Of a stretch of 64,000 nt of DNA, positions 3,810-62,300 are shown piece after piece. The stretch spans positions 2,294,001 through 2,358,000 of the forward strand of contig NEEC01000008.1 of the NCBI GenBank assembly GCA_002189035.1, written 5' to 3'. The stretch comes from Utricularia gibba. Lineage: Eukaryota > Streptophyta > Magnoliopsida > Lamiales > Lentibulariaceae. The notes beneath the pieces are model-generated. The model was not told the DNA's origin. It saw nothing but the letters and a program-made list of their open reading frames with translations, and made no database searches. Both the position numbers and the translations under genes were made by a program. The first letter of the stretch is position 1. Each line of letters opens with the position of its first letter.

Positions 3810-4354
3810 TCAAATGACTGCGGCAGCCTGGGAAATCTGTGGCACCAAAAGCTCCACGTCATACTGATACACACCGTAGTCGTCGCTCGACTGGTGGGTC
3901 GTGGTAATCACATACCCACGGGCGAATCTGAACGCTCCGGTGCCGGCGACCACCGGGATCTCCCTGACGCCCTCGTGCAGAGGGTTCCTTCCCAAAATGC
4001 TCAACGTGCTTCCCTTGAACTCCCCCTCGGTGAACACCACGTTGAGAAGCATACACAGCGCTATCTGTTTGAAATCGGCAAGCGCAATAACGCCCTGCAT
4101 CCTGCCAACTACCTGGGAGTCCTTCTCCGGCGCCGCCGTGAGCAGATTATCCAGGACGCTGACTATCCCGAACCGCGACGGAAGATCGTTGGAGAAATTG
4201 GTCTGGGCGATAGTCCACACAGTGCGGTCGTCCCCCCGACCTTGTCTTGGACGAAGAAACGGAGCCGAATCACGGAGTCCGATTGGTGTGAGGATCCGAC
4301 GGAGGTGAGTGCGAGAAAGGCAACGAAAGCGCAGAGACGCCTACCGGGAACCAT
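3810..4354 (-). pseudogene. dirigent protein gene, second tandem copy, single frameshift
   Basis: A paralog of the interrupted neighbour, same strand, about 1.05 kb away. The first frame (4354 down to about 4238) gives a signal peptide and RLRFFVQDKVGG. The second frame (from about 4231 to the stop at 3810) gives TVWTIAQTNF, FTEGEFKGSTLSILGRN, GTGAFRFARGYV and YQYDVELLVP, the rest of a normal dirigent domain. The frames meet at a run of six C (4232-4237); one more base there would restore a protein of about 181 residues, normal for the family. No other lesion is visible, so this is either a young pseudogene or a sequencing error. I keep it as a pseudogene because the sequence as given cannot encode the full protein. 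Confidence 0.85.
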
Positions 4355-5367
4355 CCTTTCTGTAGAGACTCACGGTTTCTTACACCCGTGGTAATAAATA
4401 AATAATTATCGATGGTGGGTGGGTGTGTGAGGAGATAAATACAATAAAATAGATTTAATTTCATTATATTTAAATAAAATTATATAAAATAATTTTATAA
4501 ATAAGTGGATGGTAAATCCCACATTTTCCCTTAAATCTTAATTTCAATTTTTTCTCGTTTCATTTAATAAATTTATAATTTTGATATATTTATTAATATT
4601 TCCCCACTTTATAACAACTAATGACAATATATGATAAATAACATCTTATATTAGGATATTAAAAAACGTTTTTATATGCTTCAAATATCCATTTCTTTTT
4701 TCTGGCTTATAATCAAACAATGTAATGTTTCTTAAAAAGGAAATCAAATATTTTAAATGCTATTAAAAGGTAATTAATGTATATAATCAATAAATAATAT
4801 TTTCTTTCCTTTATTTCGGTTTTCGAACAAGTGTACTTATGGAGAATTAAATAAATTATGGGTATGTTAAAATGAGAATATTGTTATTGCGGACGTGAAA
4901 TTTTCTTTTTTTCAAATTTTGTAATAATAAAAATATTAGGTATTAATTAAGGGGTGCAATTGAGTTGATGTCACGCACATGGTGTGTTGAGCAACATGTT
5001 TAATTTAGAGTTTGGGATATTCCTGGTGATTTAAAATAATAAATCACGAAATTAATTTTAATAAAATAGTATCGTAATTTCCCCAAGCGTTTAATTGCTA
5101 TGAGGTGAGTGGAGGAAAGATGTGGCATTTATGAAGAGCGTGACATCGCCGGTTGCCTTCTTGGTGTGCTTGAGCGAGGCTGGTGCGTTGGATGTGCATC
5201 CGACGGCTGAGATTGGCGCTTTTGATATTAAATGCATTCACCAGCCTGCCTGCTTTCCCTCTCTTCCTCCTCCAGGGGTGTCGTCTGTCAGTCTTAGCGT
5301 CGAGTTATCTTTTCACACGGCGGCGAGAGGTGGGTTGGAGGAGGCGGCGGAGTTTTGGGGAAGAGGG
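4355..5367. other. intergenic, AT-rich; upstream region shared by dirigent (-) and receptor kinase (+)
   Basis: Strongly AT-rich between 4440 and 5100, without credible coding potential. The genes on either side point away from each other, so this 1-kb segment must hold both promoters. The frame of the kinase gene stays open upstream to an ATG at 5122, but that stretch lacks family character. Confidence 0.6.
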
Positions 5368-8081
5368 ATGAAAGAGGTGTGGGTGGTGGGGAGGAGTCAG
5401 TGTTTGCTTTGTGGGAATGTAGTGGTTTTGTTGTTGTTGGTGTTATCTTTTATGGATGGAAGAGTTTGGTGCTTGGGTTCCATGTCGTCAATCGCCATTT
5501 CGTATGGGGAGAAGGGTTCTGTTTATTGTGGATTGAGATCCGATGGCTCGCATTTTGCTGACTGCTTTGGTTCAAATCCTGGGATCGTTAATGCAACTCC
5601 GAGGCATTTTCGCTTTGTTGGTTTAACGGGTGGAAGTGGTTTTGTTTGTGGGTTGCTTTTGGGTTCGAACCATGCGTTTTGTTGGGGGCCAATGCGTTCA
5701 TACGTACGGGTGTGCCTCTGAGAACTGGTGTGAAAACCGAGTATCTGGAGATAAGTGCAGGAGACAACCATGTATGTGGGTTGAGGAGACCTTCGACGGG
5801 GAGGCTGAGAAACATATCGTTGGTGGATTGTTGGGGTTACAACATGACAAAAAGCTACAGATTTGATGGTCAGATCCAGTCGATTTCAGCGGGTTCAGTT
5901 TTTAGTTGCGGTTTGTTTGCCCAAAATAGGAGTGTTTTCTGCTGGGGAGATGAGGCGTCAAGTGATTTCCTCTCTTTGATTCCAAAACAATCAAAGTTCA
6001 AAAAGATTGCTGCCGGAGGATATCATGTTTGTGGGATTCTGGAGGGCCTGATCTCGCGAGCCGTTTGCTGGGGTAGAAGCTTAGATTTCGAAGAAGACGT
6101 TTCATCAAGAAGTCATCCTTTTGATTGGGAGATGAATGTGGAAATATCCCCCGAAGAACCAATGCTCTCTGTTGTTGGTGGCAAATTTCATGCCTGCGGG
6201 ATAAGAAGTCGCGATAGAAATGTAGTCTGTTGGGGTTACAGAGTTGAAAGAAGTACTCCTCCACCGAGCGACATCAAGGTTTTTGAGATAGCCGCCGGTG
6301 ACTACTTCACCTGTGGTGTAATAGCACCCCAGTCTCCGTTGCCGGTTTGTTGGGGTATTGCATTTCCGTCATCTCTTCCGATTCCAGCTCCACTCGGAGC
6401 CTGTGTAACCAGCCCCTGTTTGCCCGATTTCTACGAATTCAACAATGCCAGCGCACCCTGCAGCTATCCAGGGGCTCACACCTGCTTGCGCTGCAGCATT
6501 GGATGTCCAAATGAAATGTTCGAGGTCGCAAAATGTAACGCATCGGCCAACCGACAGTGTGCCTTTAACTGTTCGAGCTGCTCCTCGAGCGAGTGCAGGT
6601 CCTCTTGCTCCAGCTCTAATGACATCAGCAACAGCAAGATTTGGTCGTTGCAGGCACCGATCATCGTTGCAGAGGTCTCATTTGCAGTTTTGCTGGTCAC
6701 AGCAGTCTCTTTTACAGCAGTTCGTTATGTTCGTTACAAGCTGAGCAACTGTAGATGTAATGTTAAGACAAGAAAGAGTGGTGGAAATGGTTCTTTCACT
6801 AAGAAGATGGTCAAGCCACTGACCGAACTAGATGAGCTCAAGATCAGAAGAGCTCAAAAGTTTACATACGAGGAGCTCGAAAGTGCGACGGATGGATTCA
6901 AGGAAGAATCCATTGTTGGAAAGGGTAGCTTTTCATGTGTTTTCAAAGGCGTTCTAGGAGATGGCACCATTGTTGCAGTTAAAAGAGCCAATGATTCTCT
7001 CGGCTTAAAGAAGAATCTGAAAGAGTTCCACAATGAGCTTGATTTGCTTTCCCGTCTCAACCACGCCCATCTGCTGAATCTGCTTGGCTACTGTGAAGGA
7101 GAAGAAAGGCTTTTAGTATACGAATTCATGGCTAATGGATCACTGCATCAGCATCTTCATGGTGACAAGGAACTTAAAGTGAAGCTAGATTGGGTGAAAA
7201 GGGTAACCATAGTCGTCCAAGCTGCTCGTGGAATAGAATACCTCCACGGCTATGCTTGTCCCCCGGTGATCCACAGGGACATAAAGTCTTCCAACATCCT
7301 GATAGATGAGGAGCACAATGCCCGTGTTGCGGATTTCGGGCTGTCGTTGCTTGGACCGGCCAGCAGCAGCTCCCCTTTGGCTGAACTTCCTGCAGGAACT
7401 CTGGGATACCTTGATCCTGAATACTACAGGCTTCATTACCTCACAACAAAGTCAGATGTTTACAGCTTTGGAGTTCTGCTATTGGAAATCTTGAGTGGCC
7501 GGAAAGCGATTGATCTGCACTACGAGGAAGGGAACATAGTGGAATGGGCTGTGCCGCTCATCAAAGCAGGGAATATTGAGTCGATACTGGATCCTGTCCT
7601 GAACCCCCCACCTGATCTTGAAGCTGTGAAAAGCATTGCAAACATAGCTAGCAAGTGTGTGAGAATGAGGGGCAAGGATAGACCTTCAATGGATAAAGTG
7701 ACGACAGCCTTGGAACGAGCTCTAGCTCTGTTGATGGGCAGTCCCTGCAATGATCAGCCCATCTTGCCGACGGAAGTGGTTTTGGGAAGCAGCAGGCTGC
7801 ATCAGAAGTCATCGCAGCGGTCTGGATACAGATCGACATCTGAAACAGATGGGGGAGATGCAGATGATCAAAGGATCGAGTTCAGAGCTCCCTCCTGGAT
7901 CACATTTCCAAGCGTTGCTTCGTCTCAACGCCGCAAGTCCTGCGACTTTGAGGAGGAGGCGGATGCCCGGAACATGGAAGGAAGAACTGCAGCAGGGATT
8001 GGAGTTGGAGGTACAGGTCCTGTTGAAGAGATACGCCCTGCATCTCCTCAACAGCACTTGTTCCTGCAACACAATTTCTGA
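5368..8081 (+). CDS. CCR4: CRINKLY4-related receptor-like kinase (CCR4 type), one frameshift near the N-terminus
   Basis: A plasma-membrane receptor kinase, probably single-exon. From ATG 5368: signal peptide (about 1-36, with VVVLLLLVLSF); crinkly/RCC1-like repeats with recurring CWG (to about residue 340); a TNFR-like cysteine-rich stretch (about 345-420); a transmembrane segment (about 430-457, IIVAEVSFAVLLVTAVSF); and a Ser/Thr kinase from about 500, with GKGSFSCVFKG, the AVKRA lysine, HRDIKSSNIL, DFGLS, GTLGYLDPEYY and SDVYSFGVLLLEI. Catalytic residues are intact. The first frame runs to about 5687 and the rest lies in another frame; they meet at five G (5684-5688), where a sixth G would join them as CWG then ANAFIRTGVP. 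The total is then about 904 residues, somewhat long for the family. An ATG at 5122 is open upstream but gives no signal peptide; 5368 is preferred. Confidence 0.9.
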
Positions 8082-8211
8082 TACAACAATCATCTGTCTT
8101 GAACTATCGTCCGAACATGGACAGGCATCTGTGATCACAATCAAATGAAATGTGTAAAAAAACTGCAGGAAAGATGGAGTGTTCAGTTTTCTTCAATGTT
8201 CCGTACAGTAG

Positions 8212-9469: not shown

Positions 9470-11175
9470 CTAGACTGAGAATGTGATGTCCTCCTTCACA
9501 CTCTCCTTTTCATTATATCCGGGAAGCCATCCCTCACCAATGGATTCCACTCTTCCACTCAATCCATCATCAAGAAAATCACCAACCCTCTTCACCTTGC
9601 CCTTTGGCTCCACTGGATACTTACCAGAGAAGCATGCGTAGCAAAAGCTGGATGAGTCCTCCCGAGGTAATTCTTCAAGGTATCGAATGAAAGAAATGCA
9701 AGCGAATCTGATTGTATGAATTCCCTGATCTCCTCGGTGCTCATTCGATTCGATATGAGCTCCTCTGGACTTGGGGTGTCAACTCCATAATAGCATGACC
9801 CGATGATTGGTGGACTTGCTATTCTCATATGAACCTCCTTAGCACCTGCCTCCTTCAATAAGCGAACAATCTTTGACGATGTTGTTCCTCTAACAATGGA
9901 ATCATCGACTACCACAACACGCTTTCCCTCCAAAACGGCCCTCACTGGGGAGAGTTTAAGTTTCACTCCAAAGTCCCTGATCTTCTGGGAGGGCTCAATG
10001 AATGTCCTGCCTACATAATGTGACCTGATCAATCCTTGTTGAAAGGGCACCCCTGCTTTGGCTGCATACCCAATGGCAGCAACAACTCCGGAATCAGGGA
10101 CAGCGATCACTACGTCACAATCCACAGGAGACTCTGTGGCAAGTATTTCTCCAAAAGCACGGCGAGATTCATAAACGGACCGGCCATAGACAATGGAGTT
10201 AGGCATTGCGAAGTATATGTGCTCAAAAATGCAGGATTTTGCCTGTTGATGAGGCATTAAACATACGGATTGAACGCCTTCCTTGTCCACAATGATAAGT
10301 TCCCCGGGGAAAACCTCTCGCTCATAAGTTGCTTCAATCAAATCCAAAGCGCAGGTCTCAGAGGCGAACACCACCGCTCCGCTGCTCCGGCGGCCCATCA
10401 CCAGCGGCCGGAATCCGTAAGGATCCCGAACAGCGACTAGCTTGTCCTCTGTTAAGAAAACCATAGAGTACGCTCCTTGTAGCCTACTGCAAGCTTCAAC
10501 TATTCTCATGAAAAACGGCCTGGCTTTAGATATGGCGATTAAGTGGAGAACAACTTCGGTGTCAGAACTTGTGTTGAATATGGAGCCGCTGTCCTCAAGC
10601 TCCTCGCGTAAACTCTGGTAATTCACCAAGTTCCCGTTGTGGGCAACGCCGACGGAGCCGAAACGGTAACCAGCGACAAAGGGCTGCACATTCTTGAGCA
10701 TGGAAGAACCTGCGGTAGAGTACCTAACATGCCCAATAGCTCTATCTCCAGGGAGCTTATCCAATTTTGATTGGTTAAAAACGTCAGAAACAAGCCCAAC
10801 GCCGGTAACTGACTGAAGAACGCCTTCGTTCACGGCTACAATGCCAGCACCCTCCTGCCCACGGTGTTGAAGCGCGTGAAGTGCTAGGTAGCAAAGGCGG
10901 GAGGCTTCTGGGTCGCCGTAAATCCCGACGACACCGCATTCTTCCCGAGGCTTATCGAAATCAAACGGAGCATCACAGTCTCCTGCTTCATCTGCCGTCG
11001 TGACAACATCAGAGATAGGGTTTTTGCAAAGTGTGGTATTACGGAATCTTTGGTATGTTTTCGGGGAGTGGCGGAAGAATTGTATACTGGGTGGCTGCGG
11101 CACAAAAGATAATCGGCCGCTAGATGCGGCGGCGGCAGCGGCAGCCGGAAAGGCGGAAGCTGTGGAAGCGGCCAT
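9470..11175 (-). CDS. ASE: amidophosphoribosyltransferase, chloroplastic (single exon), frameshift near the 3' end
   Basis: Catalyses the first committed step of purine synthesis (PRPP + glutamine to phosphoribosylamine) in plastids. From ATG 11175: an Ala/Ser-rich transit peptide (about 1-85); the glutaminase domain starting at the catalytic Cys of KPREECGVVGIYGD; then the PRTase domain with VVVVDDSIVRGTTS. The cluster-ligand regions CIFEHIYF and SCYYGVD are present. The frame as written leaves family sequence at about 9661 and stops at 9592. The other frame continues from there with EDSSSFCYACFSGKYPVEP and GDFLDDGL to a stop at 9470, matching plant enzymes. One missing base in a short C run (9661-9663) explains this. 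Without it the two CYAC cluster ligands are lost. The frame is open upstream to 11352, but 11175 gives the typical transit peptide. Confidence 0.93.
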
Positions 11176-11352
11176 GGGCAAGGTGGCGCAATTCGCAAAG
11201 TTGAACGGAATAGGTTTGTAACCTCCCCCGTACATTAATCGGAGGGAAAAGATTGGAAGACAAAGGAAAGAATCTGGCTCCTGATAATTACAGATACACC
11301 CCCAGACATTTTGTATTCTCTTTCGAGACGGCCTGAGATATTTATTGTCCAC

Positions 11353-24417: not shown

Positions 24418-26494
24418 TCAGTTCACCTCGTCGTGTGAAGGCTCCTCCTCCAGCAGCCTCTTCCTTGCTTCAACTGCCTGCAGCGACACAAACACAGAAA
24501 TCTCAGCGTCTGCTGTTACTCCGATTGGCATTCTTGGGAAAGAGACAAACACACAACCCGTTTCTCCCAGTTGTTTCGGATTGTTATCGTCCCGTACAGA
24601 ACCGTCTGCACAGAAGCACCGCACAGTACTCCGATCCACAGCCCCCTTCCTCTAAGCTTCACCAAGAACGCCAACGAAACGGCCACCGGAATCCCGACCA
24701 GATAATACGACGCAAGGTTCACGTAAGCCCCGATGTGCTGCCATCCGCACCCTCTAAGCACTCCTGTGGCACATCAAGAAGAAGCAGAAGCATACCGATG
24801 CATGAAGAAACATGTCTGCCAGTTGTTTCGTATTACAAAAGATGATGAATACTTGGCTAACCTGCCATTGTTCCTTGGATGCTATCCACGATCACAGATA
24901 AGCATATCAGAGGTGTCATGCTCGAGACGTAGTCAACGACTTCTGTCTCGTTGCTGAACACATAGCCGAAAGCTTTTCGGCTTGCAATGAGGATGGAGGT
25001 GACGATGACTCCATTCATGGCAGCCAGAAGCATCACGCTGACGAATGCGACATAGGCGAGATGCGAATTTCCTGCTCCCAACTCATTTGAGATCCTTGTG
25101 CTGGTAGCATGCATAAATACATGAATAAGAAAGATTGGAAGACAAGGAGAAAAACAGATGTATCAGAAGGCACAATACCTTGCAGCAGCAGCTAGCCCAA
25201 CTGGAATGGAAAAGAATGTTGAAAGGGTGTTCAGGCTGTCGGTAACATTGGTTAAGCAAGAAACATGATAAATGATCTACTTTTTGACATTAGAAGCATT
25301 TTAGCTGAGATGGTTTGTTTGGTTTTCATGGAATGCGTTGAATTGAAATGAAACGAAATCCAGAACAAAGTAAAAGCAGTTGGGATTGTAAGAAGTACCA
25401 CACAGCGAGCACCGAGGTTTCGAGTCTTGGATTCTGTAAGAGTCCGGACAGCAAGATGAGAAGCTCAAACGACCAGAACTCAAGGCTATAACAAGGCGAA
25501 GATGATGATTGTCAAAACATGGAGACTCAGGCAAATATCAATCTCAGCACATAAATGATTACCAGATCATAATTGCAGAAGGAACTGCAAATTCAAAGAA
25601 CTCTTTCACCCCATGGAATATCCTGAATGACATTCGAGAACGAGTTTTCTCGCATGTTGGGGAGTACTTCATGTACAGGGTAAGAATTCCCACATTCAGC
25701 CATGTTGAAAGTCCCATGGCAGCAGCCCCTCCAAGGCTGCCCAGTCCCGTCTTGAAAACGAGTGCCCAACAAACAGGGAAGTGGAAGCAGAGACAGATGA
25801 ATGTGCTTAAGAGCGTAGGGACAATCAAGCTTTGCATCTGATAGAATCGAACAAGGGGTTGAAAGAATGCATGTGCAAAGAGTGTGGGTATCAGCCAAGT
25901 GATAAACCTCTGAGCTTCATCAGAAATCTGAGGATCTTGGCCTACAAATTTCAGCAAGTCTCCAGTGAAGAGCCACAGGATGGACATGGGGATAGAAACA
26001 AGCAACAGACAAAACGTAGCAGTATAAGTTTGAGTTTCGATTTTGCCGTACTGCTGAGCACCATATGCTTGTCCGATCAAGGTTTCCAAGCCACTGCCCA
26101 TACCCACCTGTTGCATAAGAGATCAGAAGCAGGGACGGACACAATGCAATGAAGACAATACAGGATGCCTAAAATTGCAAACTAATCTGGAAATACCCTG
26201 AGCATGGAGTTTCAAGTGCAAAAATTAAAAACTACGAGCAAGACAAAGAAGCCTTACGAGGAAACTGAAACCAGTGACACCAGCAATAGAAATCGCAATC
26301 GATGTGCTCGAAAGAGCGAGTTCCCCCAAATGGCCAACCATCATAAGTGAAATAATCTGCAACAAGAAGAAAGAACGAGTGACAAACACCATGGGAACTG
26401 CTATATACCCAAGCCTCTTCATTTCCTCTCTTATCTCTCCCCATTTCACCTTCTTAGTATTTGGTTTTTCCTTCATCAACAACCCCTCCTCCAT
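24418..26494 (-). CDS. MATE efflux transporter (DETOXIFICATION family), array copy 1
   Basis: Seven exons: 26494-26258, 26107-25563, 25485-25399, 25235-25179, 25100-24862, 24763-24558, 24477-24418, joining to 476 residues. MATE proteins export organic cations, flavonoids and other metabolites by proton antiport at the plasma membrane or tonoplast. Twelve hydrophobic segments are visible in two MatE domains. Family marks: [46 protein letters not shown] and [11 protein letters not shown]. It differs from the other three at the usually conserved LSGQAFG (here LIGQAYG) and in the third segment (VFVTRSFFLLQ), so its substrate range may differ (inference). The reading frame is intact. Confidence 0.93.
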
Positions 26495-27358
26495 TTCCTC
26501 CCCCTCTGCTTCACCTTCCTAAGGTGAAGAATTCCCACAGACCCAGAATGTGTGGAAGGCCAATAGGATAAAGTCCACGATATTTGGTTGCTATCATATA
26601 TACATGAATAGAACAAACATGCCTGTGGTTCATCGAATCATGATTTGGTGTCCTATATAAGCAGAGACTTGTCTTCATATCACCAAGAATGAGTAGACAG
26701 GTCCCTGCCATCACCTTCTATCTGCGGTCCTGATCAAATTGGCACTGCCCATCACCTTCTCTATTGGGTACAATTTGCTTTTCTCAACCCAACAAGGAAG
26801 AAAATAGCAAATATGATACAAGCTTCCATGAAAACATTCTCTAGCACTCGAAGCTCAACTCATCTACAATAAATTGATAATTCATTGTCAGCAAGTAACG
26901 AACTCCAAATTGTTTATCTATACTTTTCAATGGACTTGAATTCAATAATTATTAATGTTGACATTAGATAAACATATTTTACCATAGTTTAATTAAGTTT
27001 GTACTGGATTTTGAATGGGTTTGAATTGAACAATTATTAATATAGCATAGTTTACCATAGTGTTGTTAGCATACATAATTTTGGGTTGATTCAAAATTAT
27101 TTATTTTTATTATTATTATGAATTAAAATTAAATATTATTTTTCAGAATAATGTAAAATGTGTCATTAAAATGGAAATGACTTAACGTGTATAATTATTA
27201 TAATGTCGGAAAAAAATTAAAATGAAGACAATAAAATCTGCTCGATCTCAATCTTTGTTACTAAGCCAGAATCCAATTTCACCCACGTGATCCACATGAC
27301 TCGCTGAACTCTCTCTCTCTCTCTCTCTGTGCCATTGCCGGGTTCGGTTGCTTCTGCA
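26495..27358. other. intergenic between MATE copies 1 and 2, with a CT microsatellite
   Basis: Promoter of copy 1 on the left, AT-rich from 26930 to 27240. A (CT)10 tract lies at 27309-27328, just beyond the 3' end of copy 2. The motif TTGCTATCAT.TATA near 26587 recurs upstream of copy 2 near 29484. Confidence 0.6.
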
Positions 27359-29293
27359 TCAACTTAATTCTTCATGTGTGGGAGAAGATCTCTCTTTCGT
27401 CAGCCTCTTCCTTGCTTCAATGGCCTGCAGTAAAACCAGCACACTTACTGTTGTTCTGTGTTCTTGCAGGCATACCAGAATCTACACAAAGAAAGACAAT
27501 GAAACCTGTCTCTCCCAGTTCGTGAAGCTTGTTATAGCGCCGAACATGACTGACTGCAGAAAGACACCACAGAGTATTCCGATCCATAGCCCCCTTCCTC
27601 CAAACTTCAGCAAGAACGCCAACGAGGCTGCGATCGGAATCCCGACAAGGTAATACGCCGCAAGGTTCAAGTAAGCTCCGATGTGCTGCCACCCGCAGCC
27701 CCTAACGATCCCTGAGCCATATGGGAGAAGGTTAACCCTGAACATGGTAATGAAGATGACTTGGATGGGATGTTTTTGCCAAGAACCTGCCATAGTTCCC
27801 TGGACACTGTCGATGAATACGGACAGGCACACAAGGGGAGCCATGCTTGAGACATACTCAACGACCTCCATCTCGTTGCTGAATATGTAGCCAAAAACGT
27901 TTCGGCTGAAGAGGAGGATGGCACTGACTACGACTCCATTGATAGCTGCAAGAAGCATTGCACTGATGCAGGAGACATGGGCCGAATGGGGATTTCCAGC
28001 TCCCAACTCATTTGAAATCCTTGTGCTGATGTATTTTATACACACAAATGAGGGAGAGGAGCTAAACGAGGGAAGGTGTGATGAAGGTTTTTGAAGTATA
28101 CCTTGCAGCAGCAGCTAATCCCACGGGAATTGAGTAGATTGTTGAAATGGTGCTCAGGCTGCAGAAACAGGTCAGTAAGTAATGGAACTCGATCATGGGA
28201 GTTGAAAAGAAACTGAATTAGTTGTCATCAATGGTAATACCACACAGCCAGCACTGAGGTTTCGAGTTGAGGATTTGGTAGGAGCCCAGAAAGCAAGACA
28301 AGCAGCTCAAACGACCACCATTCCAGACTACAACAGGAATAACTTGGTTGTCAACAAGAAGAACAATAAATGCATAGAAAGCTTGGCAGATAACTGATTA
28401 CCATATCATTATTGCAGAAGGAATTGCAAATCCGAAGAACTCTTTCATTCCATCAAATATCTTACATGAAATGCGCGACCGTGTTTGCTCACACGCGGAG
28501 GAGTATGCCATATACAAGCTGAGAATTCCCACATTCAGCCATGTTGAAAGTCCCATGGCTACTGCACCTCCAAGATTCCCTAGTCCTGACTTGAAAACAA
28601 GTGCCCAGCAGACGGGGATGTGAAAGCACAAGGTGATGAATGAACTTAGGATCATTGGGAAAATCAAGCTTTGAATCTGATAAAATCGAACAAGGGGCTG
28701 AAAAAATGCGTAGGCGAAGAGGGTCGGTATTAGCCAAGTTAAATATTTTCCAGCTTCAATAGATATCTGAGGGTCCTGACCAACAAACTTCAGCATATCT
28801 GCAGTGTACAACCAAAGGATGGACAGGGGAATAGAAACAGTGACCAGACAGAAAATCGCTGTGTAAGTTTGAGTTCCAATTTTTTCATACTGTTGAGCAC
28901 CAAAAGCTTGCCCGCTTAACGTTTCCAAGCCACTGGCCATGCCTAACTGTTTCACAAGACCAGATTCTCACAAAGATGACAAGAAAAACAAGTATATAGG
29001 CAAAAAAAACAGCAGCAGAGAGTTGACAGCAGAGTAAACACAAGCAGCTGGCTAACAATTCGAGGAAGCCTTACAAGGAAACTGAAGCCAGTGACACCAG
29101 CAAGAGAAACAGCAATAGATGTGCTCGAAAGAGCAAGTTCCCCCAAATGCCCAACCATCATAAGTGATATAACCTGCAAGAAGTAGAAAGAAAGAGTAAC
29201 AGCCACCATGGGGCCAGCTATATACCCAAGCCTCTTCATTTCCTTTCCAATCTCCCCCCAGCTGACTTTCTTATTGCATGATGCTTCCTTCAT
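27359..29293 (-). CDS. MATE efflux transporter (DETOXIFICATION family), array copy 2, altered start
   Basis: Seven exons: 29293-29075, 28946-28402, 28327-28241, 28158-28102, 28025-27787, 27711-27506, 27424-27359, giving 472 residues from ATG 29293. Motifs as in the other copies ([32 protein letters not shown]). The ATG used by the paralogs (equivalent at 29310) is present, but it runs into a stop after five codons because the A run at 29295-29299 is one base short. Translation could start at 29293 (losing about six residues) or at an in-frame ATG at 29371 (adding 26 residues without family character). Intron 5 (75 bp) is in frame and stop-free. Confidence 0.88.
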
Positions 29294-29371
29294 CAAAAAC
29301 CCTCCTCCATTTTCCCCTGTTCCTTCGCTCTCCAACCAAAATTTCAGAAAAACAAGAGATACATGAACCAT

Positions 29372-30625
29372 GCGAGAATACTAGGATTATGACACATTCT
29401 ATGAGTGGTTGATATAAAATACTGGGAAAAACAGTCTCTTTTTGCTCAACAACATCGACAAGCCACAACAGGTAATAATTACTTGCTATCATGTATATCC
29501 CCAAGGTTTGTCTTTACAAAGGGCTCAACCCCAAGACGTGGTCCCAATGGCATTCACATCACGTACCCATTACCCCTCCACCCCTGGAGTTCTTTTCCCT
29601 TTGTCGATACACACAAGGGAATATAGCAGAGAATCAAATCCCAAATTGGATACAAGATGTTTCCTAAGATTGTAACAGGTATTTCTATACAAAACCCATT
29701 TGGAATCCAGCTTGCATGCACCAAATGCGAGTGACTGAATTTCATTCAATGCAGTCATCGAGTTCCGTAAATAATTCGTTGAAACAACACCTCCAAAGGG
29801 TAAGAACAACCGGGGAATCGGGAAGTGGCGATATTGGGACCGTGCAAGAAATAGAGGAGTCCGCCAACTTCTATGAAAAAGGCCCCATTATCTATACAGT
29901 CTTTTTTTTTCTTACATTTTTTATTGTTAAGATTTATAGCCACCTGTCTATGCTGTCATTCCTGGGACTCATCATTAACAAATTGGAATTAGAAATTTCG
30001 TGAATAATAATGAAATTTTAATAAATAAAAGATATGAAAATATATTATTAAATTTGAATTTATCCACGTTTGTTTTAGGCAATCCTATGATTCTATTTTT
30101 TTTAGAAAACGCATAATAATTTTTTACATTATCAATTTTTTATAATATAAAGAGTATTTTTTTTAGATTAATTATATCGTTTAGAAAAAAAAAATTGTTA
30201 AATAAATACCACATATTCGCTTTGGGCCGGGCTCACTCCCAACTACGTAATAGACACAGGCCGGTGTGTTCGATAAAAACGAGGCGCTTTTTTTTAACAG
30301 TCGTCTTCTTCTTCGTGTGAGTTTTAGGCGGCTCCGATCGGAGTTTTTCCGGCTTGTCTATGAGGATCAGGAGGCTTTTGGTCAAGTATCTTGCTCTTTA
30401 TTGGTATTCACTGACTGACGCTACGCATCGCCTCCCTAATTCTCCATTTTGGTTTCTTTTCTGCCTTGTGATATTCAAAGTTTTTACCCTAGAACTACCT
30501 ACTGAAAGTCTGATGGCATTTGAGTCTCTTTTGTATGCAAGAAACAGGCGCAGATACAATGCATATCAGCGGCCAATCCATCGACACAAGTTACGTCTCA
30601 ATGCAGCATCTGGGCTTCTTTTGCA
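29372..30625. other. intergenic between MATE copies 2 and 3
   Basis: The left part (29372-29860) is promoter of copy 2. The stretch TTCATTCA.TGCAGTCATCGAGTT near 29740 resembles sequence upstream of copy 4 near 35926. AT-rich from 29980 to 30220. No gene recognised. Confidence 0.5.
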
Positions 30626-32548
30626 TCAGCTTAGTTCATCATCCGGTGCAGAAGAGGTTTCCACCTCCAGCACCCTCTTTCTGGCGTCGAGGGCCTGCAG
30701 CAACACAACACTTTCAGGATCTACCTCTTCTGTTACAGTATTAACAAGAATCTGGTCAGAGCCAAACAACACCTGTTTTTTCCAGTTGGTGCAGTATGCC
30801 ATTGTCCCGTACAAGACTATCTGCACACAGACACCGCACAGTATTCCAATCCACAGCCCCCTTACGTTGAGTTTCAGTAAGAAAGCTAGCGAAACTGCAA
30901 CCGGGATCCCGACGAGGTAGAATGCCACAGCATTCAAGTAAGCTCCGATGTCCTGCCACCCGGACCCTCTAACAACTCCTGAGACACATGAAAAAATTCA
31001 TAACATTTATCTTTCTTCTCACAGGGAGAGAGACTTTAACAACCTGCCATGGTTCCTTGGAGACTGTCGAAGATCAGGGATATGCATAGCAGGGGAGCAA
31101 TGCTTGCAACGTACTTAACAACTTCTATCTCACTGCTGAATACATACCCAAAGTAATTCCCGCTGAACAGGAGAATGGAGCTAACAATTAATCCATTGAT
31201 GGCTGCCAGGAGCATTATGCTGATGAACGAGACACGGGCAAGATGTGGATTTCCAGCTCCCAACTCGTTTGATATCCTTGTGCTGAATATTACGAAGGAA
31301 TCAGAAAGTGTGGAGCAGAATCAGGGAATCCTAGAAAGTGCAAAAAGTACTAATACAAGTGGAGTTTTTTGAAGTGTACCTTGCTGCAACTGCGAATCCA
31401 AATGGAATCATATAGAATGTTGAAAGGGTGTTTACGCTGTCAATAGCAACTCATTAAGCAGAAGAACATGATGTTTGAAACAGCTGTGAGAATGCTATGG
31501 CTAGGAAAAGATACCAGACAGCCAGCACAGAGGTTTCTAGTTGAGGATTTGGCAGGAGACCGGAGAGCAAAACTAGAATTTCAAATGAGCACCACTCGAA
31601 GCTAAAGCATGAAAGCAGTCAAGTGAAGACTAAAGAAAAATAAGAAAGCTCAAGTAAAAGCTTGGCATGTAGGTGATTACCAGACCATAACTGCTGAAGG
31701 GACTGCATATTTGAAGAATTCTTTCATCCCATCGAAGATCTTGAACGAAATAGGAGATCTGGTCTTCATACATGCAGGGGAATACATCATGTGCAGAATG
31801 AGAATCCCCACATTTAACCATGTTGAAAGTCCATTGGCAAGAGCAGCTCCATGGTTCCCTAGGCTTGACTTGAACACAAGTGCCCAACAAATGGGAAAAT
31901 GGAAGCAGAGAGAGAGGAATGAGCTTATGAGCAATGGAGCAATCAGGCTTTGAATTTGATAAAATCGAACAAGGGGTTGAATAAATGAATAGCCAAAGAG
32001 GGTAGGTATCAGCCATGTTAAATATTTTCCAGCTTCAGTAGAAATCTGGGGATCTTGACCTACAATTTTCAGCAAGTCTCCACTGTAAAACCACAGGACG
32101 GACAGGGGAACAGAAACAAGGACCAGACAGAAAATAGCAGTATAGGTTTGGGTTCCAATTTTTTGGTATTGCTGAGCACCAAATGCTTGTCCACTTAATG
32201 TCTCCAAACCGCTGGCCATACCAGACTGTTGAATTAAAGCACGAAGTTAACTAAGAAATACATCCTGGAGCACTCCATGAAGGTATACTGTTTCTTAAGT
32301 TCGAGGAAGCTTACAATGATATATAGGCCAGTGACAACTCCAAGAGAAACAGCGATAGACGTGCTCGAAAGAGCGAGTTCACCCAAATGACCCACCATCA
32401 TAAGCGATAAAACCGGCACCATGAAGAAGGAAAGATTGACAGCCACCATTGGGGCTGCAATAGTTCCAAGCCTCTTCATTTCCTCCCCTATCTCTCCCCA
32501 ACTCAATCTCTCATTGTATGAGCTTTTCTTCATCAATAAACCCTCCAT
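30626..32548 (-). CDS. MATE efflux transporter (DETOXIFICATION family), array copy 3
   Basis: Seven exons: 32548-32315, 32225-31681, 31601-31515, 31436-31380, 31282-31044, 30978-30773, 30694-30626, joining to 478 residues. Exons 2 to 6 have exactly the same lengths as in the other copies (545, 87, 57, 239 and 206 bp). It carries [31 protein letters not shown] and RGSGWQDIGAY (Ser for the usual Cys). The Met of MEGLLMKK is taken as the start by comparison with copies 1 and 4. The last intron (78 bp) is in frame and stop-free, so its retention would insert 26 residues near the C-terminus. The frame is intact. Confidence 0.93.
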
Positions 32549-33458: not shown

Positions 33459-35680
33459 TCAGCTTACTTCATCATGTGGTGCAGAAGAGGATTCCACCTC
33501 CAACACCCTTTTTCTTGCTTCAGTTGCCTGCACAGGACACTCTTAACGCCTAACTAACTGCTGTGTATTCTTACACCAATAACAAGAGAATCTGCATAAA
33601 GACAAGCAAAACCTGTTTCTCCCAGTTGATGCGTATCGCCATTGCCCCATACAAGACTACCTGCGTAGAGGCACCACACACTATTCCAATCCAGAGCCCT
33701 CGCCCTCCGAACTTCAATAAGAATGCTAACAAAACCGCAACCGGAATCCCAACAAGGTAAAACGCCGCGAGGTTTAAGTAAGCTCCAATGTCCTGCCACC
33801 CACACCCTCTAATAACACCTGAGACAGGTGAACAAATTCAGAGTTCAGTTATATATCATGTAACTCTCATGTGATTCCAGATGAAGGTTTGATTGATATA
33901 TCTCAAAAACCTGACATAGTTCCTTGTAAGCTGTCGAAAACCACGGAGATGCATAGCAGAGGAGCCATGCTTGCAACATACTTAACAACTTCTGTGTCAT
34001 TTATAAATACGTAGCCAAAAACACCCCGGCAGAAAAAGAGAATGGAGCTGACAATGAATCCGTTCATGGTTGCGAGAAACATTACACAGATGAATGAGAC
34101 ACGGGCCAGATGTGGATTTCCGGCTCCCAACTCATTTGCTATCCTCGTACTGCATATTGTACAAGAATCAGGAACTTTAGAGCAAAGGAAAGTAATCCAT
34201 GAAATTGCCACAAGTACTAATCAAAGTGTGATATTATGTACGTATACCTTGCTGCAACTGCTAATCCAAATGGGATTGAAAAAATTGTTGAAAGAGTGTT
34301 CAGGCTGTCAAGAACAAGTCATTAAGCAAAAGCACATGATACTTAAAACAACTGTGAGATTAATCATGATATCGAAAAAATACCACACAGCGAGCACTGA
34401 GGTTTCCAGTTGAGGATTTGGCAAGAGACCAGACAGCAAAACAAGTAATTCAAATGAACACCACTCAAGGCTAAAACATGAAAAATTTAGATGCCAAGTG
34501 AAAATTAAACAGAATAGGAGGTCAAATACATATGAAGTTTGACACATAAGTGAATACCAGGTCATAACTGCAGAAGGAACCGCAAATCTGAAGAACTCTT
34601 TAATTCCATAGAAGATCTTGAAAGAAATAGGAGATCTAGTTCTCAAACAAGCAGGGGAGTACTTCATATACAAACTAAGAGTTCCCACATTTAACCATGT
34701 TGAAAGTCCCAAGGCAACAGCAGCTCCATGGTTCCCTAGGCCTGTCTTGAACACAAGTGCCCAACACAGAGGAATATGGAAGCAGATAGTGATAAATGAG
34801 CTTATGAGCATTGGGACAATCAAGCTTTGAATCTGATAAAATCGGATAAGGGGTTGAAGAAATGCATAGCCAAAGAGGGTAGGTATTAGCCAAGTTAAGA
34901 ATTTTCCTGCTTCAGTAGAAATCTGAGGGTCTTGACCTACAAATTTCAGCAAGTCTCCAATGTACGACCACAGGACGGACAGGGGAATACAAACAAGGAC
35001 CAGACAGAAAATAGCAGTATAGGTTTGAGTTCCAACTTTTTGGTATTCCTGAGCACCAAATGCCTGTCCACTTAATGTTTCCAAACCGCCGGCCATACCC
35101 AGCTGTAAAGTAGAAATTCGAACTAATTCAAGCATCTCATGAAAGCATAAAACTCACAAGTAAGGTGTCAAATTTTCCATTTTTTCCAGTGAATCACTTC
35201 ATTGCATGAAATCTTTGTAAATAACCTTTAGGGTCCACACATTAGGCCTATGGCTTTTAACCAATACAACAGACTGTAATGGATATAAATGCTAGTATTT
35301 TCCGCATTCCAATAACGAATCCTTTTTCACTCAGTTTCTGAACCGGGGGATTCACCAATAAAAAATGTTCATACAGAGAATGGGATGTTTAACGAAATCC
35401 AAGTAAACATAGACATTGTTTCCTTAAGTTCGAGAAAGCTTACGATTAAACTCAGGCCAGTGACAACACCAAGCGAAACGCCAATAGACGTGCTGGAAAG
35501 AGCGAGTTCGCCCAAGTGGCCGGCCATCATAACCGAGATAACCTGCAACAAGTAAAAAGAGAGATTGACAGCCACCATTGGAGCTGCTACATTCGCAAGC
35601 CTTTTCATTTCCTCCCGCGCCTCTCCCCAGTCCAATCTCTTATTGTACGATCTTTCCTTCATTAATAAACCCTCCTCCAT
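33459..35680 (-). CDS. MATE efflux transporter (DETOXIFICATION family), array copy 4
   Basis: Seven exons: 35680-35444, 35102-34558, 34470-34384, 34304-34248, 34149-33911, 33818-33613, 33527-33459, joining to 479 residues. Motifs: [32 protein letters not shown] and RGCGWQDIGAY. Start MEEGLLMKE matches copy 1 exactly. It is closest to copy 3 by eye (shared GVVTGL at the exon 1 end, QDIGAY, and similar promoter). Intron 1 (341 bp) is longer than in the other copies. Intron 2 (87 bp) is in frame and stop-free. The frame is intact. Confidence 0.93.
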
Positions 35681-38114
35681 TTTCTCTCTTCCTGCTTTAT
35701 CAGAAAAAAAAGAAAAGTAAACTCTTGGGAAGAAGACACATGCCATGGTTGTCATCATCCATATCCCTCCCCAAAGCTCTCATTTTGATATTTACCCAAC
35801 ATTAAGAGAAATAAGGGACTACCAAACCTTAATCCATGTGCATGTGCAATAAATTTGCTTCATCAATAAACGAAAATGCGTTTCAGCGGAATCTTAAATG
35901 CATCAGAAGTGAGTGAATGAAGTTCATTCAGCATAATGATCGAGTTTGCTACATGCAGTATTATACCGCACTATACCTTTGAAGATCGATGCGAAGCGCG
36001 CACTGAAATCTTCCAGGGAATAAATCCCTTAATTTTGGGCGATTGATGCACTGAGGCGTGGTGACTAGGAGGTAAAATAGCCTAAAATACTCGAAGAAGA
36101 CGCCTTGGAGAGCAAGTAGCTCAGGAGGTAAAATAGCGTAAAATACTCGAAGAGGACACCGTGGAGAGCAAGTAGCTCAGGAGGTCGAAATCCAATTGCC
36201 ATCTTTTTCCGTGCCTGCTAATTCGCTAAATTTTCTACTCTCACGACTTCAATGGCTGAAACGCTCTTGCTGCCACAGCCACTCATCTAAGCAAATGGTC
36301 TTTTGACTTCAATTCAGGATTTGAATTTACTGTTAATTTGGGTTTCATTTCGACTGAGTCGTTTTATCTCATTTGGCTTTGAATCAATTAAACACCTATT
36401 ACTAATTTTCATTTTATTTAATACATTATTTATTAATATTTCCATTTGCAGTTTTTCACATAAATTCCCACCAAACCAAATGGTGATTTGGAGTAATTTA
36501 TTTTATAATGAAAAACAAATGGCATAATTTTTCATTTGCACCTTGTGATATCATACGTATATTTTTATTTTTATCCTCCTCAGACCATTAATTTTATTAT
36601 CAAATCTTAATTTCTCCATTTTATTGACAAAGATTCATGTCAATAAACCGGAAAATAAGTGTGCATGATGACTTTATTGGATTTAATACTATCTAAATAC
36701 CATTGAATTCCGATGTGGTGTCATCACGCAAGTTGTCGAATTCAATAACCTCTTGGTGGGATACTCCAGGATGCAGCACTGGGATTCACTCACTGCTGAA
36801 TGTCTTCCATCTTCAAACTCCCTCCCACTCGCAGCAGTTAAATCTGGGGGAGGAGCCATCTGATACAACAGAGGAGCCATCATCTCGTCCTTGCTGCCAT
36901 CGGAGGAAGAGATCCTACCAACCACCCACCGCCTGAGCAAATCTGGGAGGCGGTGGAGCGAGATGGTATGCATTAATACTCACAACATGACAACACAACA
37001 CCCCACGTTGAAATGGGAGGGAATCTCCCCGGATTCACACTCCTGAGGTGGGGAAACGCACCCCGGATCGGGATCGCCTGCAAACACAGGGTCCGGTTCG
37101 GTTCGGTTCGGTTCTGCGTTGATAAAAAAACCAGTCAAAAAGGCAAGAAAAGCAAGCACCAATATGGGTGTTAACTCGTTTCAGAGTGGCTCCCATCCCT
37201 AATAATTTTCAACTCCTTGGACATCTCAGGTGCAGGTTCAGACCGTGGAAGCTCTTACCCGGTCATATTATTAAACTTGTCGATTTTCATTTCATTTTGC
37301 ATGAATTTCTTGCTATATTTATTACATGCACATCTAAAAAAATCGTGATTTTGCATTGATTTTTAAACTCCTCTCCTCCTGCAAAGCCCTAGAAACAGAT
37401 GGCGTCATGACTGACTCCGCCATGACGGCCGACTGGAGGGCTTTTTTCTAAATTCGTATTAAAAGCATCTGAAATTCGGTCTTCTGTTCACAGCCTTGAA
37501 TTGAATTGAATGGGTCCCTTCGGCACCAACCCAAAATGGCTCTTCCTTCCGCTTTCCTCTCAATTGTATATAATTCCAGGCAATCTGTTTTTTTAATATT
37601 TTATTTGCATAAATTATTTTTTATTCATCTAATAACTCAAGAAACTGTGAATAAAAGTATATATATCACTATGATCATTTCAAAGGGCTATTAAAAAAAT
37701 AAAAAGATAATTCTGTTCGTTGTCCGTTTCAAACACGTAGACAAGACCCTTAGTTTTGAGTTGTTTGATTTTGCTTTTGCCACCCCATTTTTGGAATTCA
37801 TTTTTTTATTTTAAACATTGAAATATATTTAAATAAATTCAATCAAATCAATTTAAATGGCAACATAATATATAAATGAAATTAAATTCTTTAAAAATAA
37901 GATTAAATTAGAATCTATGGGTTTTATAAAAAGTGGACCCACCAACACAACTGCCGTCGGAAAACTGAACTTTGAAAGGCGCACCGAATTTCAAAGAAAA
38001 GGGCCTGTAATTCTGCAGCCATATGAACTCGGTTTATTCCTCCCCACTAAATAAATAAATACTCTCTCGCATTTCTCTCCGCCAATCCCCTCCTCCTGTT
38101 CCAAGAGTATTGAG
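35681..38114. other. intergenic, 2.4 kb, with a 56-bp tandem repeat and an unrecognised GC-richer block
   Basis: 35681-36240 is promoter of MATE copy 4 and contains the 56-bp repeat listed separately. 36240-36690 is AT-rich. 36700-37130 is GC-richer with a minus-strand open frame (36973-36689, including LLRRWVVGRISSSDGSKDE) that I do not recognise, followed by four GGTTC units at about 37091-37110. 37560-37930 is AT-rich. An AT-rich TATA-like stretch near 38049 precedes the next gene. Confidence 0.5.
36067..36185. repeat. 56-bp tandem repeat, two copies plus a partial third
   Basis: Copies begin AGGAGGTAAAATAG at 36067 and 36123, with a third fragment AGGAGGT at 36179. They differ at a handful of positions. 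The core (AAATACTCGAAGA...GGAGAGCAAG) resembles single-copy sequence upstream of MATE copy 3 near 32925-32950, so the repeat grew from an ancestral MATE promoter segment (inference). Confidence 0.85.
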
Positions 38115-40376: not shown

Positions 40377-40846
40377 ATGGCTTCTGCTCATCTCAACCTC
40401 CTCCGAACCACTGCCCTTCTAATCCTCATCTTCTTCTTGCCCGGCACATCTCCATCCGCCGGAAGGACCCTTCTTCAGGAGGTGTCCAACAAGTGCGGCA
40501 ACTGCCCCTGCGACAAGCCCTGTCTCCCGCCTCCCTCTCCATCTCCCCCGCCACCTTGTCCTCCACCGCCGTCCCCTTCTCCTCCACCACCGTCCCCTTC
40601 TCCTCCCCCTCCTTCCCCGCCGCCAGTCCTGGAGATCCCTCCTCCGAGCTCCACCATATGCCCCCACCACCGCCGCCGCAGGGAGGGTGGCGCCCGCCGA
40701 GCCCGCCTTACTTATACATCAACGGTCCGCCGGGGAACATATACGAGGTGTACCCGTTCAACTCCGCCGTGCACAGAGGACCCTCTGTCGCGGGTGTGAT
40801 TACTGCCGTGATTTTGGTCTCCGCCGTGTGGGCGGTGGCAGGGTGA
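40377..40846 (+). CDS. proline-rich cell-wall-type protein, one frameshift
   Basis: Signal peptide (about 1-30, TALLILIFFLPGTSPSAGR), then a short cysteine motif (KCGNCPCDKPC), then extensin-like SPPPP repeats (about 50-90). The first frame then turns Arg-rich, while another frame continues with PPPPPPQGGWRPPSPPYLYI and ends in a hydrophobic tail (VAGVITAVILVSAVWAVAG), as expected for a GPI-anchor or membrane tail. The frames meet at five C (40661-40665) after an ATG; one more C would join them into about 157 residues. Known plant relatives share the signal peptide, CGxCPC motif, Pro-rich stretch and hydrophobic end. The role is unknown; a wall or cell-surface location is inferred. Confidence 0.75.
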
Positions 40847-56340: not shown

Positions 56341-58057
<1,717 letters not shown>

Positions 58058-59336
58058 GAACGGAACAATGAAGAACAAGAACAGGATCCTCTGCCCTGTT
58101 TAGTAGCTGCCGTAAAAGTGTTCCCAGGGAGTAAGTTTCTAGCACCTTCTGGACCGAACAAATGGACTCAACTCAATTTTCCGAATAATTTATTTATTTC
58201 CTTACACCGTTTTTCCTTTAATTGAGAATTTATTATCAATTTAATAAACAAAAAAGCACCCCATAAAGAACACAAAAAAGCACCCCACAATGACATCATA
58301 TAATTTTAAAAAAAAAATTATGAAGAAAGAATTGAATAATTCATTTGATTCCTAGAGGCTGAGCATGGGTAGGTGGAAGTGTGGGGGTTGGCATGGCATC
58401 AAACGAGTTGAATGGCAGACTCGGATCCAATCCCGTGGACAAATACCACTTGTTTTTCTCATCAACGCCAACAAAATAATGGATGGGACGTGAAAGTTGC
58501 TTGCTTAAATGAAATGAAACCAGCGGAGAAGTTAGACACGGTGACGCCGGCTTTCGCGATCCCAGGAGCTGCTTCGACAGGTTATAAATAAAAAATTATT
58601 ATTTTATTCAACGCATAAGTTAGAATTTAAAAGATATTATTTCATAGTCTACTTAAATTCCTAACTCTTAACCACATATATCATTTGACAAATACAAACT
58701 AAATCAGCATCTTTCTCAACCAGAGCAATCGGGAACGGTACACGTGTTCAACACTCCCCCACTGCCTACTGATGGTCACTTTTGCAGTGTGTTTTGAGAG
58801 GCAGGCGGTGGAAGAGAGTTGGAGACCAGATGGAAGTGGTGGCTGATTCCCCTCAAGGGCCCTCCACATGAATATGGACACACTTGCACTTACCACGCTA
58901 CAAGCATATCATATATAATACAGCAGCACATCACAGTTCAATTCTTTTTTCCAAACTTATTTACTCTGCACACCCCTGACACAGGAAAACAAGGGGGATA
59001 GAACTCTGACAGCAATGGGATACTTTTTTTGCCGTCCCCGTTCATTGCAGACTCAACCCTATCGAATCCATGTGACAATTAGCTAGGCAAGGAGGGTAAC
59101 CACTACATGACTTCAAGTATAAACAGCACTTTCAACGAACAACCAAAAAATGTGCGATGGGTCAGAATACAAACAAACAATGATGCTTAACATCTTACTT
59201 GTTCCAACAGTCTCTCCTGTACAGCATTTGCAAAATTTACTGCCAGTACCTGGAGGACGTACAGCTTGCAGCAACCTCACTGTTACAGATTACATTCAGG
59301 GGCTGTGTTCTTGATGGTTAAAACTCATACATGTTT
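58058..59336. other. intergenic between DHAR and SAC3-like gene
   Basis: Upstream of DHAR (to about 58600) and 3' flank of the SAC3-like gene. No credible open frame or repeat recognised; AT-rich patches at 58170-58340 and 58570-58690. Confidence 0.5.
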
Positions 59337-62300
59337 CTAAGCTGAGCTCCGTGTCAAGAAATCATTTACTGCAAGGTTTGTATCCCCATGTGACACAGCA
59401 TCTTCAGGATCTGGCATGTAAAGACTCGAGACAGAAACCTGAACAAACATGAGGGCGTTCTTAATACACGTGTAATGAAAGTAAATAAACTGCCAACTAG
59501 GATCACTCGATATAGTGTATACGTACAATTCACAATTAGCATTGGAAATGCGAAAAATCATTCGGAAAAAAAAGTGGGATCTGATATCAAATTTCACAAA
59601 TCTGGGTCTTTTTTGGAAGTCATAGAAACTTACCTTTGTATCAAGTAAAACCTCCCAGAGGCCTCACGAATGATGCATGCACCATGGGCTTTTAACCATT
59701 CCGTGCATTCCTCTAATCCATCTGCTTTGTCATCCATACATGTGTCATTCGTTGGCGGTGTATTACGAAATCCCAGGATTTGAGAAAGATATGAAACAGG
59801 AACTGTTGGACGGTATGATCTTGACATACATTTTACAGCTGCATATCGCATTTTTTCAGCATACAGATCTGCAATCGAAAACGATTGCATTAGCATTTGA
59901 GAGTACAGGTGGAAATGGTTGAAACAAATGTTTTAACTGCATCAGAAAATACGATGTGCAAAGAACGTACCCATAAATAATGCATTAAGATTTGGTGCAG
60001 AGTTGTAGAGTTTAAAAAACATCACATAATTTCCTGCTGTCACAGCGGCTCGAACAGAGAGGGCATGTTTAACTGCTTCGTCTTCCTTAGCCAACTCAGA
60101 TAATCTGCAAAGTGGACAACTAGAAAGTTAAGCATAAACAGAAAATCGCGATGTCACCACCCATCAAACTCTTACTGCCATACCTTGACATGGCTGATAG
60201 CAGGTCTCTGTTATTATTTGAGTGTAAAATTACAGATAGCAAATTGTAGGCAGCAAATTCCATGTGGCATCCAATAATTCCCTCTGCATAGAGAGTTTTC
60301 AATTGTGATTGGCACTGCAAAGAAAAAAGTGGTCAGGATCTAACAGTAAGAAGTTGCAAGAGTTAACAGTGAGGAACTCAAACAGCCACTGTCGGCAACA
60401 AAAGTATCTCAAGCACTGATCATGACCTCCAGGGTCCATCCATTATTCACAACTGAAGCAACGAGGATTTAGAAGGCAGCATGTGGCAGGTATAAGAATC
60501 ACAAGGAAAGAAAGAAACGAAGTATGGAGAGAATTCAAGCACTGGTGCTTCTCAACAGATCTTAGAAAAAAAACTTAAATAATGCAGCACAGCAGCCAAA
60601 CAGAAACATGACATGTGCCGGCTGAGTGGTTATCATAAAAAACCTGATTATATTCTGGCAAGTCCCCAGCTTCTATGGCAAATCTTGCGTGAGTTTCATA
60701 AACCTAGCATCAAATAAAAAACAAAAAAACAAACAACGGTTAAGTAATGGTGCTGTGTACAATTATTAGAACAATGCATTATTACACATCATATGGAAAA
60801 GGTGTTAAAAAAAAAGAATCTCAAAACCAGCAGAAGAAACAAAAAATAAAGCATATGATGACATTAGTACCTTAGCTGTGAATTCATTCCGTATGTGCTG
60901 TACAGTAAGATCTTGCCTTATTGACTTCAGCTGATCGCACTTATAAAGATAATTTTTAGGAGAGTTTTGAACCATTGATAAAGCTTTTTCTAACACGTCC
61001 TCGGGTCTCACCTGCAATTGGAAAAGAGATTCATGTACATTAGCATCATCACCCATTAGCCACTCACTTTCAGCACATACAGATGCTTTCAAAGCTTACA
61101 GTAGCCGGATCAGGCGCTGAAGTAAGACGCAAGTAACGTTTTTCAATTTCTTGGCATGTCCCCTTGATGATTAGAGCATCCCAGTCAATATCTTCAACGG
61201 CTCTGCTCCCACTTTCCTCAAAAGATCTACTCAGAACTAAGGCACTGGCCCGTCTTGCATGAAAATGACCAGAATTAGAAGCCACGCCATTTTTTTTTCC
61301 GAGGCTTTCCTGAGACTGCTTTGAATGTCCTCTTTCAAAACGCTTTGAACGATTTTCACGTCTTCTCTTCTCCTCAGGTGTATCTGCAAGTGCAATTGCA
61401 GCTGCATAGTACTTCGTCAAATTTTGCTCCTTGTCACTATCACTAGATGATCCATTATCATTAGTCACATTCAAATCATCATTAACTCGCTGCCTCTTAG
61501 CAGGTCTTGCAGCATTTTTACGAAAACTTTCCTGATCTGTTAAAGAATATTTTGTTCCCAAATCACCTTTATTCTCTGTTAGTCCACCAGACAACTGCAA
61601 GTTGCAGATACAGTACATTGGCATTGTTCAGATGATAAGATACATGTAACCATCACAAACAGAAGCATAAACTCCATATCTTCAGTACATATCACAACAA
61701 AAAAACTACGCATCTACATCTCCCTTTATGTTACCCCCATTGGCAGCCTTACTCTATACAACAGGTAACGGAAGCGTACTCACCATATATTACACAGCAT
61801 CATTTAAGATAGCAAGGAGCTTGTTTTAATTTTTTTTGACTACCTATGTCTAGTTTTAAATTTTTTTAACTACCTATGCCTATGGTGTTACCCCCACATG
61901 CAGCCTTAATCTATAAAGCGGGTTGCAAGAGCATGCACAAAGCACACTCTGCGGCATCATTCTGAAAAACCATCAGGCATACCTGCCTAAGATAGTAAAG
62001 AAATATTCAACCTTATCTAGACTACCCCAACATGGAAATTGAAGACATAATCAACATCAGTAAAATGAAAAGTATGTCCCTTTTGTTACCTGACTGGAAT
62101 TCCAAAAACCATATCCAGAAGAAGCATAAGAACCGTTAGCAGGTGTCCCAACCTTTTTCTCCTCTTGGATAGGTTCCCACCTACTTTTAGGTCGTCGAGG
62201 GCTCTTACTCTTTTGAATCAGAAAATCCGGTACCAAAAATGGCCCATTTCTGGATTGGGAAAAACATAAGTTTAGTATCTTGTTTTAAAATTAAGGACCA

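What the first reader, a model, noticed from the sequence alone, without database searches (positions are those of the whole stretch)
4232..59656. Six one-base losses at homopolymers put otherwise intact genes out of frame
Sites: dirigent copy 2 (C run 4232-4237), CCR4 (G run 5684-5688), ASE (C run 9661-9663), MATE copy 2 start (A run 29295-29299), proline-rich protein (C run 40661-40665) and SAC3A (C run 59654-59656). In each case one additional base of the same kind restores family sequence on both sides, and no other lesion is seen in the gene. Two of the sites share the context CCTCCC. Six independent pseudogenisations, all being one-base losses in runs, is unlikely; a homopolymer bias in the consensus is simpler. 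Long multi-exon genes (MER3, SULTR4) are clean, so the rate is roughly one per 10 kb.
Basis: partly seen in the sequence, partly recalled or inferred. Interest (0 to 1): 0.75.

Follow-up and report, generated by a model that had tools for sequence, protein, structure and literature searches.

The report
False frameshifts from shortened G/C runs
The broken genes in this plant window are almost certainly intact genes whose runs of G or C were recorded one base too short by the sequencing, an error found across this whole genome assembly, so they should not be read as lost genes.

Summary
All six sites are at the stated coordinates. Five genes (dirigent copy 2, CCR4, ASE, proline-rich protein, SAC3A) change frame by minus one base at a G/C run with no intron. 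The sixth, MATE copy 2, also lacks one base against its tandem sisters, but an in-frame ATG just downstream leaves the gene readable.

The interpretation (consensus error, not pseudogenes) is supported and extended. Four unrelated gene families searched genome-wide (149 kb of coding matches) hold about 28 clean frame breaks: all losses, roughly one per 5-6 kb of coding sequence, no clean gain. Of 26 junctions analysed, 20 lie at G/C runs of true length 4 or more, against 24 of 235 simulated random deletions (p = 5e-13). A/T runs are not enriched. About 30% of GRAS genes and several HSP70s are affected. CCR4 stays under strong purifying selection after its shift (dN/dS 0.07), and its duplicate has one loss at a different G run. 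The C3 copy of SAC3A shows what real decay looks like here: stops and many indels.

The error is nearly G/C-specific, so 'homopolymer bias' is too broad. The assembly resembles the HGAP/Quiver PacBio assembly of Utricularia gibba. Reads were not available.

The parts
4232..4237 (-). Dirigent copy 2 (about 3813-4354): frame change of minus one base at a run of six C (inferred true length 7)
   Evidence: Frames; intact dirigents L088, L089
5684..5688 (+). CRINKLY4-related receptor kinase CCR4 (about 5386-8078): minus one base at a run of five G (inferred 6)
   Evidence: duplicate on C3 (L034) has one more base here and itself lacks one at another G run; dN/dS 0.07 after the shift
9661..9663 (-). 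ASE, amidophosphoribosyltransferase (about 9478-11175): minus one base; GGGAGG on the coding strand where GGGGAGG is expected
   Evidence: duplicate L002 on C3 is in frame; upstream part matches 6lbp at E 3.6e-251
29295..29302 (-). MATE copy 2 start: one base fewer than the tandem sister copies (A5 at 29295-29299, or equally CCC at 29300-29302); an in-frame ATG follows at once, so the gene remains readable
   Evidence: the downstream frame aligns to AtDTX14
40661..40665 (+). Proline-rich protein (40377-40846): minus one base at a run of five C (inferred 6)
   Evidence: single-frame homologues L091 and L092
59654..59656 (-). SAC3A, exon at 59633-59900: minus one base; GGGAGG on the coding strand where one more base is expected (GGAGAGG in the C3 copy)
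   Evidence: C3 copy L086 has GGAGAGG at the site and is itself a decayed pseudogene

Best explanation
The frame breaks are errors in the assembled consensus. Runs of G or C were called one base short during long-read base calling and polishing, at a rate that rises steeply with run length, across the whole assembly. The genes in the plant are most likely intact. Shown: position, sign, G/C-run bias, genome-wide occurrence, continuing purifying selection. Inferred: that reads would show the longer run, that the platform is PacBio CLR with HGAP/Quiver, and that the species is Utricularia gibba.
For: All five gene-breaking window sites are minus-one at G/C runs. Genome-wide search of GRAS, KCS, HSP70 and HXXXD-transferase families: about 28 gapless frame breaks, all losses, no clean gain; junction DNA and frameshift-aware alignments. 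20 of 26 junctions at G/C runs of 4 or more versus 24 of 235 simulated deletions, Fisher p = 5.3e-13; A/T runs of 4 or more 2 of 26 versus 45 of 235. No intact G/C run of 7 in 44.7 kb of open coding sequence, while several breaks have an inferred true run of 7 (L030, L045, L048, L051). At one GRAS motif three copies (L029-L031) and L045 break at C runs while sister copies with other codons are open. Each CCR4 duplicate has one loss at a different G run; dN/dS 0.07 after both CCR4 shifts and 0.14 after the ASE shift. Two contigs of one locus (C316/C412, 29.3 kb) differ by 35 one-base lengths but only 23 substitutions, 20 of the 35 in G or C, and one of these breaks a GRAS gene in one contig only (412 versus 615 aa). 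Precedent: P6-C4 reads, HGAP v3 and Quiver left 205 indels, nearly all in G or C homopolymers (PMC4832174). The U. gibba assembly used HGAP, 88x, contig N50 3.4 Mb (PMC5793159); G000 has 100.09 Mb in 516 contigs.
Against: No reads, RNA-seq or second assembly of the species was available, and no second contig covers five of the six sites (MATE2 not searched). One HSP70 break (L059/L060) has no G/C run at its best placement and is shared by two contigs. The assignment of some junctions to a run is ambiguous. Another PacBio study found leftovers mainly at A or T runs (PMC6005640), so G/C specificity is not universal.
Confidence: 0.96

Rival explanations
1. Real recent pseudogenisation: G/C runs slip in replication and these genes have truly lost one base, tolerated because whole-genome duplication left second copies.
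For: ASE and CCR4 have duplicates on C3, and real decay does occur in this genome: the C3 copy of SAC3A has stops and many indels.
Against: The same lesion type, always a loss, is found in about 30% of GRAS genes and in several HSP70s; both CCR4 copies would be dead; the window SAC3A is the only good copy; selection continues downstream; real decay here looks different.
Confidence: 0.02
2. Mixture: most breaks are consensus errors but one or two of the six are real mutations or real allelic differences.
For: Individual sites cannot be settled without reads; MATE2 is harmless either way; a break without a G/C run is shared by two contigs at an HSP70 locus.
Against: All five gene-breaking window sites fit the genome-wide G/C pattern, and no other lesion is seen in those genes.
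Confidence: 0.1
3. The frame changes are unannotated introns or alternative starts rather than missing bases.
For: Applies in part to MATE2, where a downstream in-frame ATG removes the problem; a KCS gene in the window whose frames also split is explained by introns.
Against: At the other five sites the two frames abut with no room for an intron, and relatives are continuous there.
Confidence: 0.01

Closest known systems
Residual G/C-homopolymer indels in PacBio CLR assemblies polished with Quiver only (e.g. Streptomyces albus SM254, PMC4832174)
   Same: Indels confined almost wholly to G or C runs after HGAP and Quiver; false frameshifts are the expected result
   Different: Here a eukaryotic nuclear genome; the rate, about one per 5-6 kb of coding sequence, is much higher than 205 per 7.17 Mb; only losses seen
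Gene-fragmenting deletion errors in nanopore assemblies (Kastor study, PMC12007338)
   Same: False deletions dominate and sit in runs of two to eight bases
   Different: There A/T runs dominate; here G/C runs do
True duplicate-gene decay after whole-genome duplication (SAC3A copy on C3)
   Same: The reading frame is lost
   Different: The decayed copy has many indels and stops at 72% identity; the window genes have a single lesion each

Membership tests
Long-read consensus homopolymer error | One-base length errors at homopolymers, enriched over random deletion | tested here: met
   20 of 26 at G/C runs of 4 or more versus 24 of 235 simulated
Long-read consensus homopolymer error | Genome-wide and independent of gene function | tested here: met
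   Four unrelated families on many contigs
Long-read consensus homopolymer error | Error rate rises with run length | tested here: met
   Rough rates by true length: 4 about 1%, 5 about 2%, 6 or more about 40%, no intact run of 7 seen; small numbers
Long-read consensus homopolymer error | Independent consensus of the same locus differs in run length | tested here: inconclusive
   Seen for C316 versus C412, but these could be alleles; no second contig covers the five gene-breaking window sites
Long-read consensus homopolymer error | Accurate reads show the longer run | not testable with these tools
   No reads or second assembly of the species held
Pseudogene | Relaxed selection after the lesion | tested here: not met
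   CCR4 dN/dS 0.07 after versus 0.14 before the shift; ASE 0.14 after versus 0.10 before
Pseudogene | Accumulation of several lesions of mixed kind | tested here: not met
   One lesion per gene; contrast the C3 SAC3A copy. A very recent lesion would also look like this

The most novel reading that the evidence does not exclude
The short runs are real and the plant tolerates thousands of one-base losses in G/C runs, the reading frame being restored at the RNA or translation level.
Probability: 0.005. Interest if true: 0.95.

Novelty: not a real feature. Interest (0 to 1): 0.2.

Why it matters
The effect is assembly-wide: about one false frameshift per 5-6 kb of coding sequence, with about 30% of GRAS genes affected. 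Any claim of gene loss, pseudogenes or family contraction read from this sequence without transcript or short-read correction is unsafe. If the assembly is the Utricularia gibba reference, a genome known for being small and reduced, that is a practical warning. The G/C-run signature gives a simple rule for telling false breaks from real decay.

Tried and rejected
Introns as an explanation: rejected at five sites because the frames abut; accepted for the window KCS gene, which had looked like a further break. Best-single-insertion placement against divergent relatives over-fitted single residues, so a tolerance and a simulation control were used instead. Open-frame length as a judge of which contig is right in the C316/C412 pair: only two sites decidable, split one to one, so the pair is used mainly for the ratio of length differences to substitutions. 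Plastid psaA/psaB as a high-coverage control: psaB is intact, but psaA carries several mixed lesions in its first half, so that contig is not a clean control. Breaks at contig ends (C414 end, C416 start) and in evidently decayed GRAS copies (C244:2105k, C3:261k) were left out of the count. The original U. gibba PacBio paper is not held. My first reading that MATE2 shows no missing base at all (note) was dropped after comparison with the sister copies.

Full report
Where it is. The window is C414:2294001-2358000 of an assembly of 100.09 Mb in 516 contigs. The size and the many contigs of about 3.4 Mb fit the published Utricularia gibba assembly (PacBio 88x, HGAP, contig N50 3.4 Mb; PMC5793159). 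This identification is an inference; names are not given.

The six sites. All runs are at the stated positions. Translation in three frames shows a minus-one frame change without room for an intron in dirigent copy 2, CCR4, ASE, the proline-rich protein and SAC3A. Relatives in the same genome are continuous across the corresponding place: the ASE and CCR4 duplicates on C3, dirigents L088/L089 and proline-rich proteins L091/L092; the C3 SAC3A copy has the additional base. ASE and SAC3A share the coding-strand context GGGAGG where one more base is expected; the same context recurs in a GRAS gene (L046) and, as GGGAG, in an HSP70 gene (L061) elsewhere. MATE copy 2 is one base shorter than its sisters at the very start (MEEGLLMKE in two of them), but the base could be in the A run or in the neighbouring CCC, and the next ATG is in frame, so that gene is readable as it stands.

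Is it local? No. I searched the whole assembly for four unrelated families: GRAS, 3-ketoacyl-CoA synthase, HSP70 and HXXXD transferases. Neighbouring matches that lie in different frames with no intron between them can be recognised from coordinates alone. In 148.7 kb of matched coding sequence about 28 such breaks occur, all minus one or minus two (two losses), none a clean plus one. About 11 of 36 GRAS genes are affected, as are several HSP70 genes that are otherwise nearly identical to intact sisters.

What do the sites share? DNA at the junctions was fetched and aligned with a frameshift-aware program to intact paralogues. With a scoring tolerance, 20 of 26 junctions (four of them from the window) fall at a G/C run of at least 4 in inferred true length, against 24 of 235 random deletions simulated in intact GRAS genes and put through the same procedure (Fisher p = 5.3e-13). 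For A/T runs of at least 4 the counts are 2 of 26 and 45 of 235. This is conservative, because two sites that are plainly at C runs by eye (dirigent 2, L031) were scored low against divergent relatives. In 44.7 kb of intact coding sequence there are 194 G/C runs of 4, 39 of 5, four of 6 and none of 7. Set against the breaks, roughly 1% of runs of 4, 2% of runs of 5 and about 40% of runs of 6 or more would be short; these are rough figures from few events. At one conserved GRAS motif, copies whose codons form C runs are broken and sister copies with other codons are open.

Are the genes dead? CCR4 and its C3 copy differ at 209 third positions but only 66 first and 35 second positions after both shifts, dN/dS 0.07; ASE shows 0.10 before and 0.14 after its shift. 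Both CCR4 copies carry one loss each, at different G runs. The C3 copy of SAC3A, in contrast, is a real pseudogene with stops and many indels at 72% identity, leaving the window copy as the only good one. Selection tests cannot exclude very recent mutations, but a third of a transcription-factor family and HSP70 genes all mutating recently in the same way is not credible.

Independent consensus. Contigs C316 and C412 cover one locus for 29.3 kb. They differ by 23 substitutions and 35 one-base lengths in both directions, 20 of them G or C. One difference breaks a GRAS gene in C316 (412 aa) and not in C412 (615 aa). They may be alleles, but real alleles normally differ more by substitution than by length (general knowledge). 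None of the five gene-breaking window sites has such a second contig.

Known precedent. A P6-C4/HGAP v3/Quiver assembly of Streptomyces albus needed 205 indel corrections from Illumina reads, nearly all in G or C homopolymers (PMC4832174). In other long-read settings A/T runs dominate (PMC6005640, PMC12007338), so the G/C pattern is a fingerprint of platform and polishing.

Verdict. It is not biology. The read-level test remains to be done.

Noticed in passing
L034 (C3:3253388-3258481): The CCR4 duplicate on C3 has its own single-base loss at a different G run, a further consensus-error candidate.
   Followed up: yes
L086 (around C3:3312839-3312940): The SAC3A copy on C3 is a truly decayed pseudogene with stops and many indels; useful as a contrast to the false breaks.
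   Followed up: yes
window versus C3:3.25-3.31 Mb: Dirigent, CCR4, ASE, KCS and SAC3A have partners in the same order on C3, so the window lies in a duplicated block.
   Followed up: partly
L094/L095 (C515:69548-73822): Plastid-like contig of 267,500 bases: psaB is intact but the first half of psaA has several frame changes and stops, so poor consensus, a chimera or a degraded plastid copy.
   Followed up: partly
contigs C1, C2, C505, C507, C515: Several contig lengths are exact multiples of 2500 (8,500,000; 6,192,500; 3,452,500; 642,500; 267,500), perhaps a trace of the polishing windows.
   Followed up: no
L059 (C241) and L060 (C304:2236140-2236400): An HSP70 gene lacks one base at a place without a long G/C run, and two contigs share the loss; possibly a real mutation.
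   Followed up: partly
window 1-2370: A Ty1-copia element with a 702-aa open pol frame sits next to dirigent copy 1 and appears to cut it short.
   Followed up: no
window 26200-35780: Tandem array of at least four MATE genes on the minus strand.
   Followed up: partly
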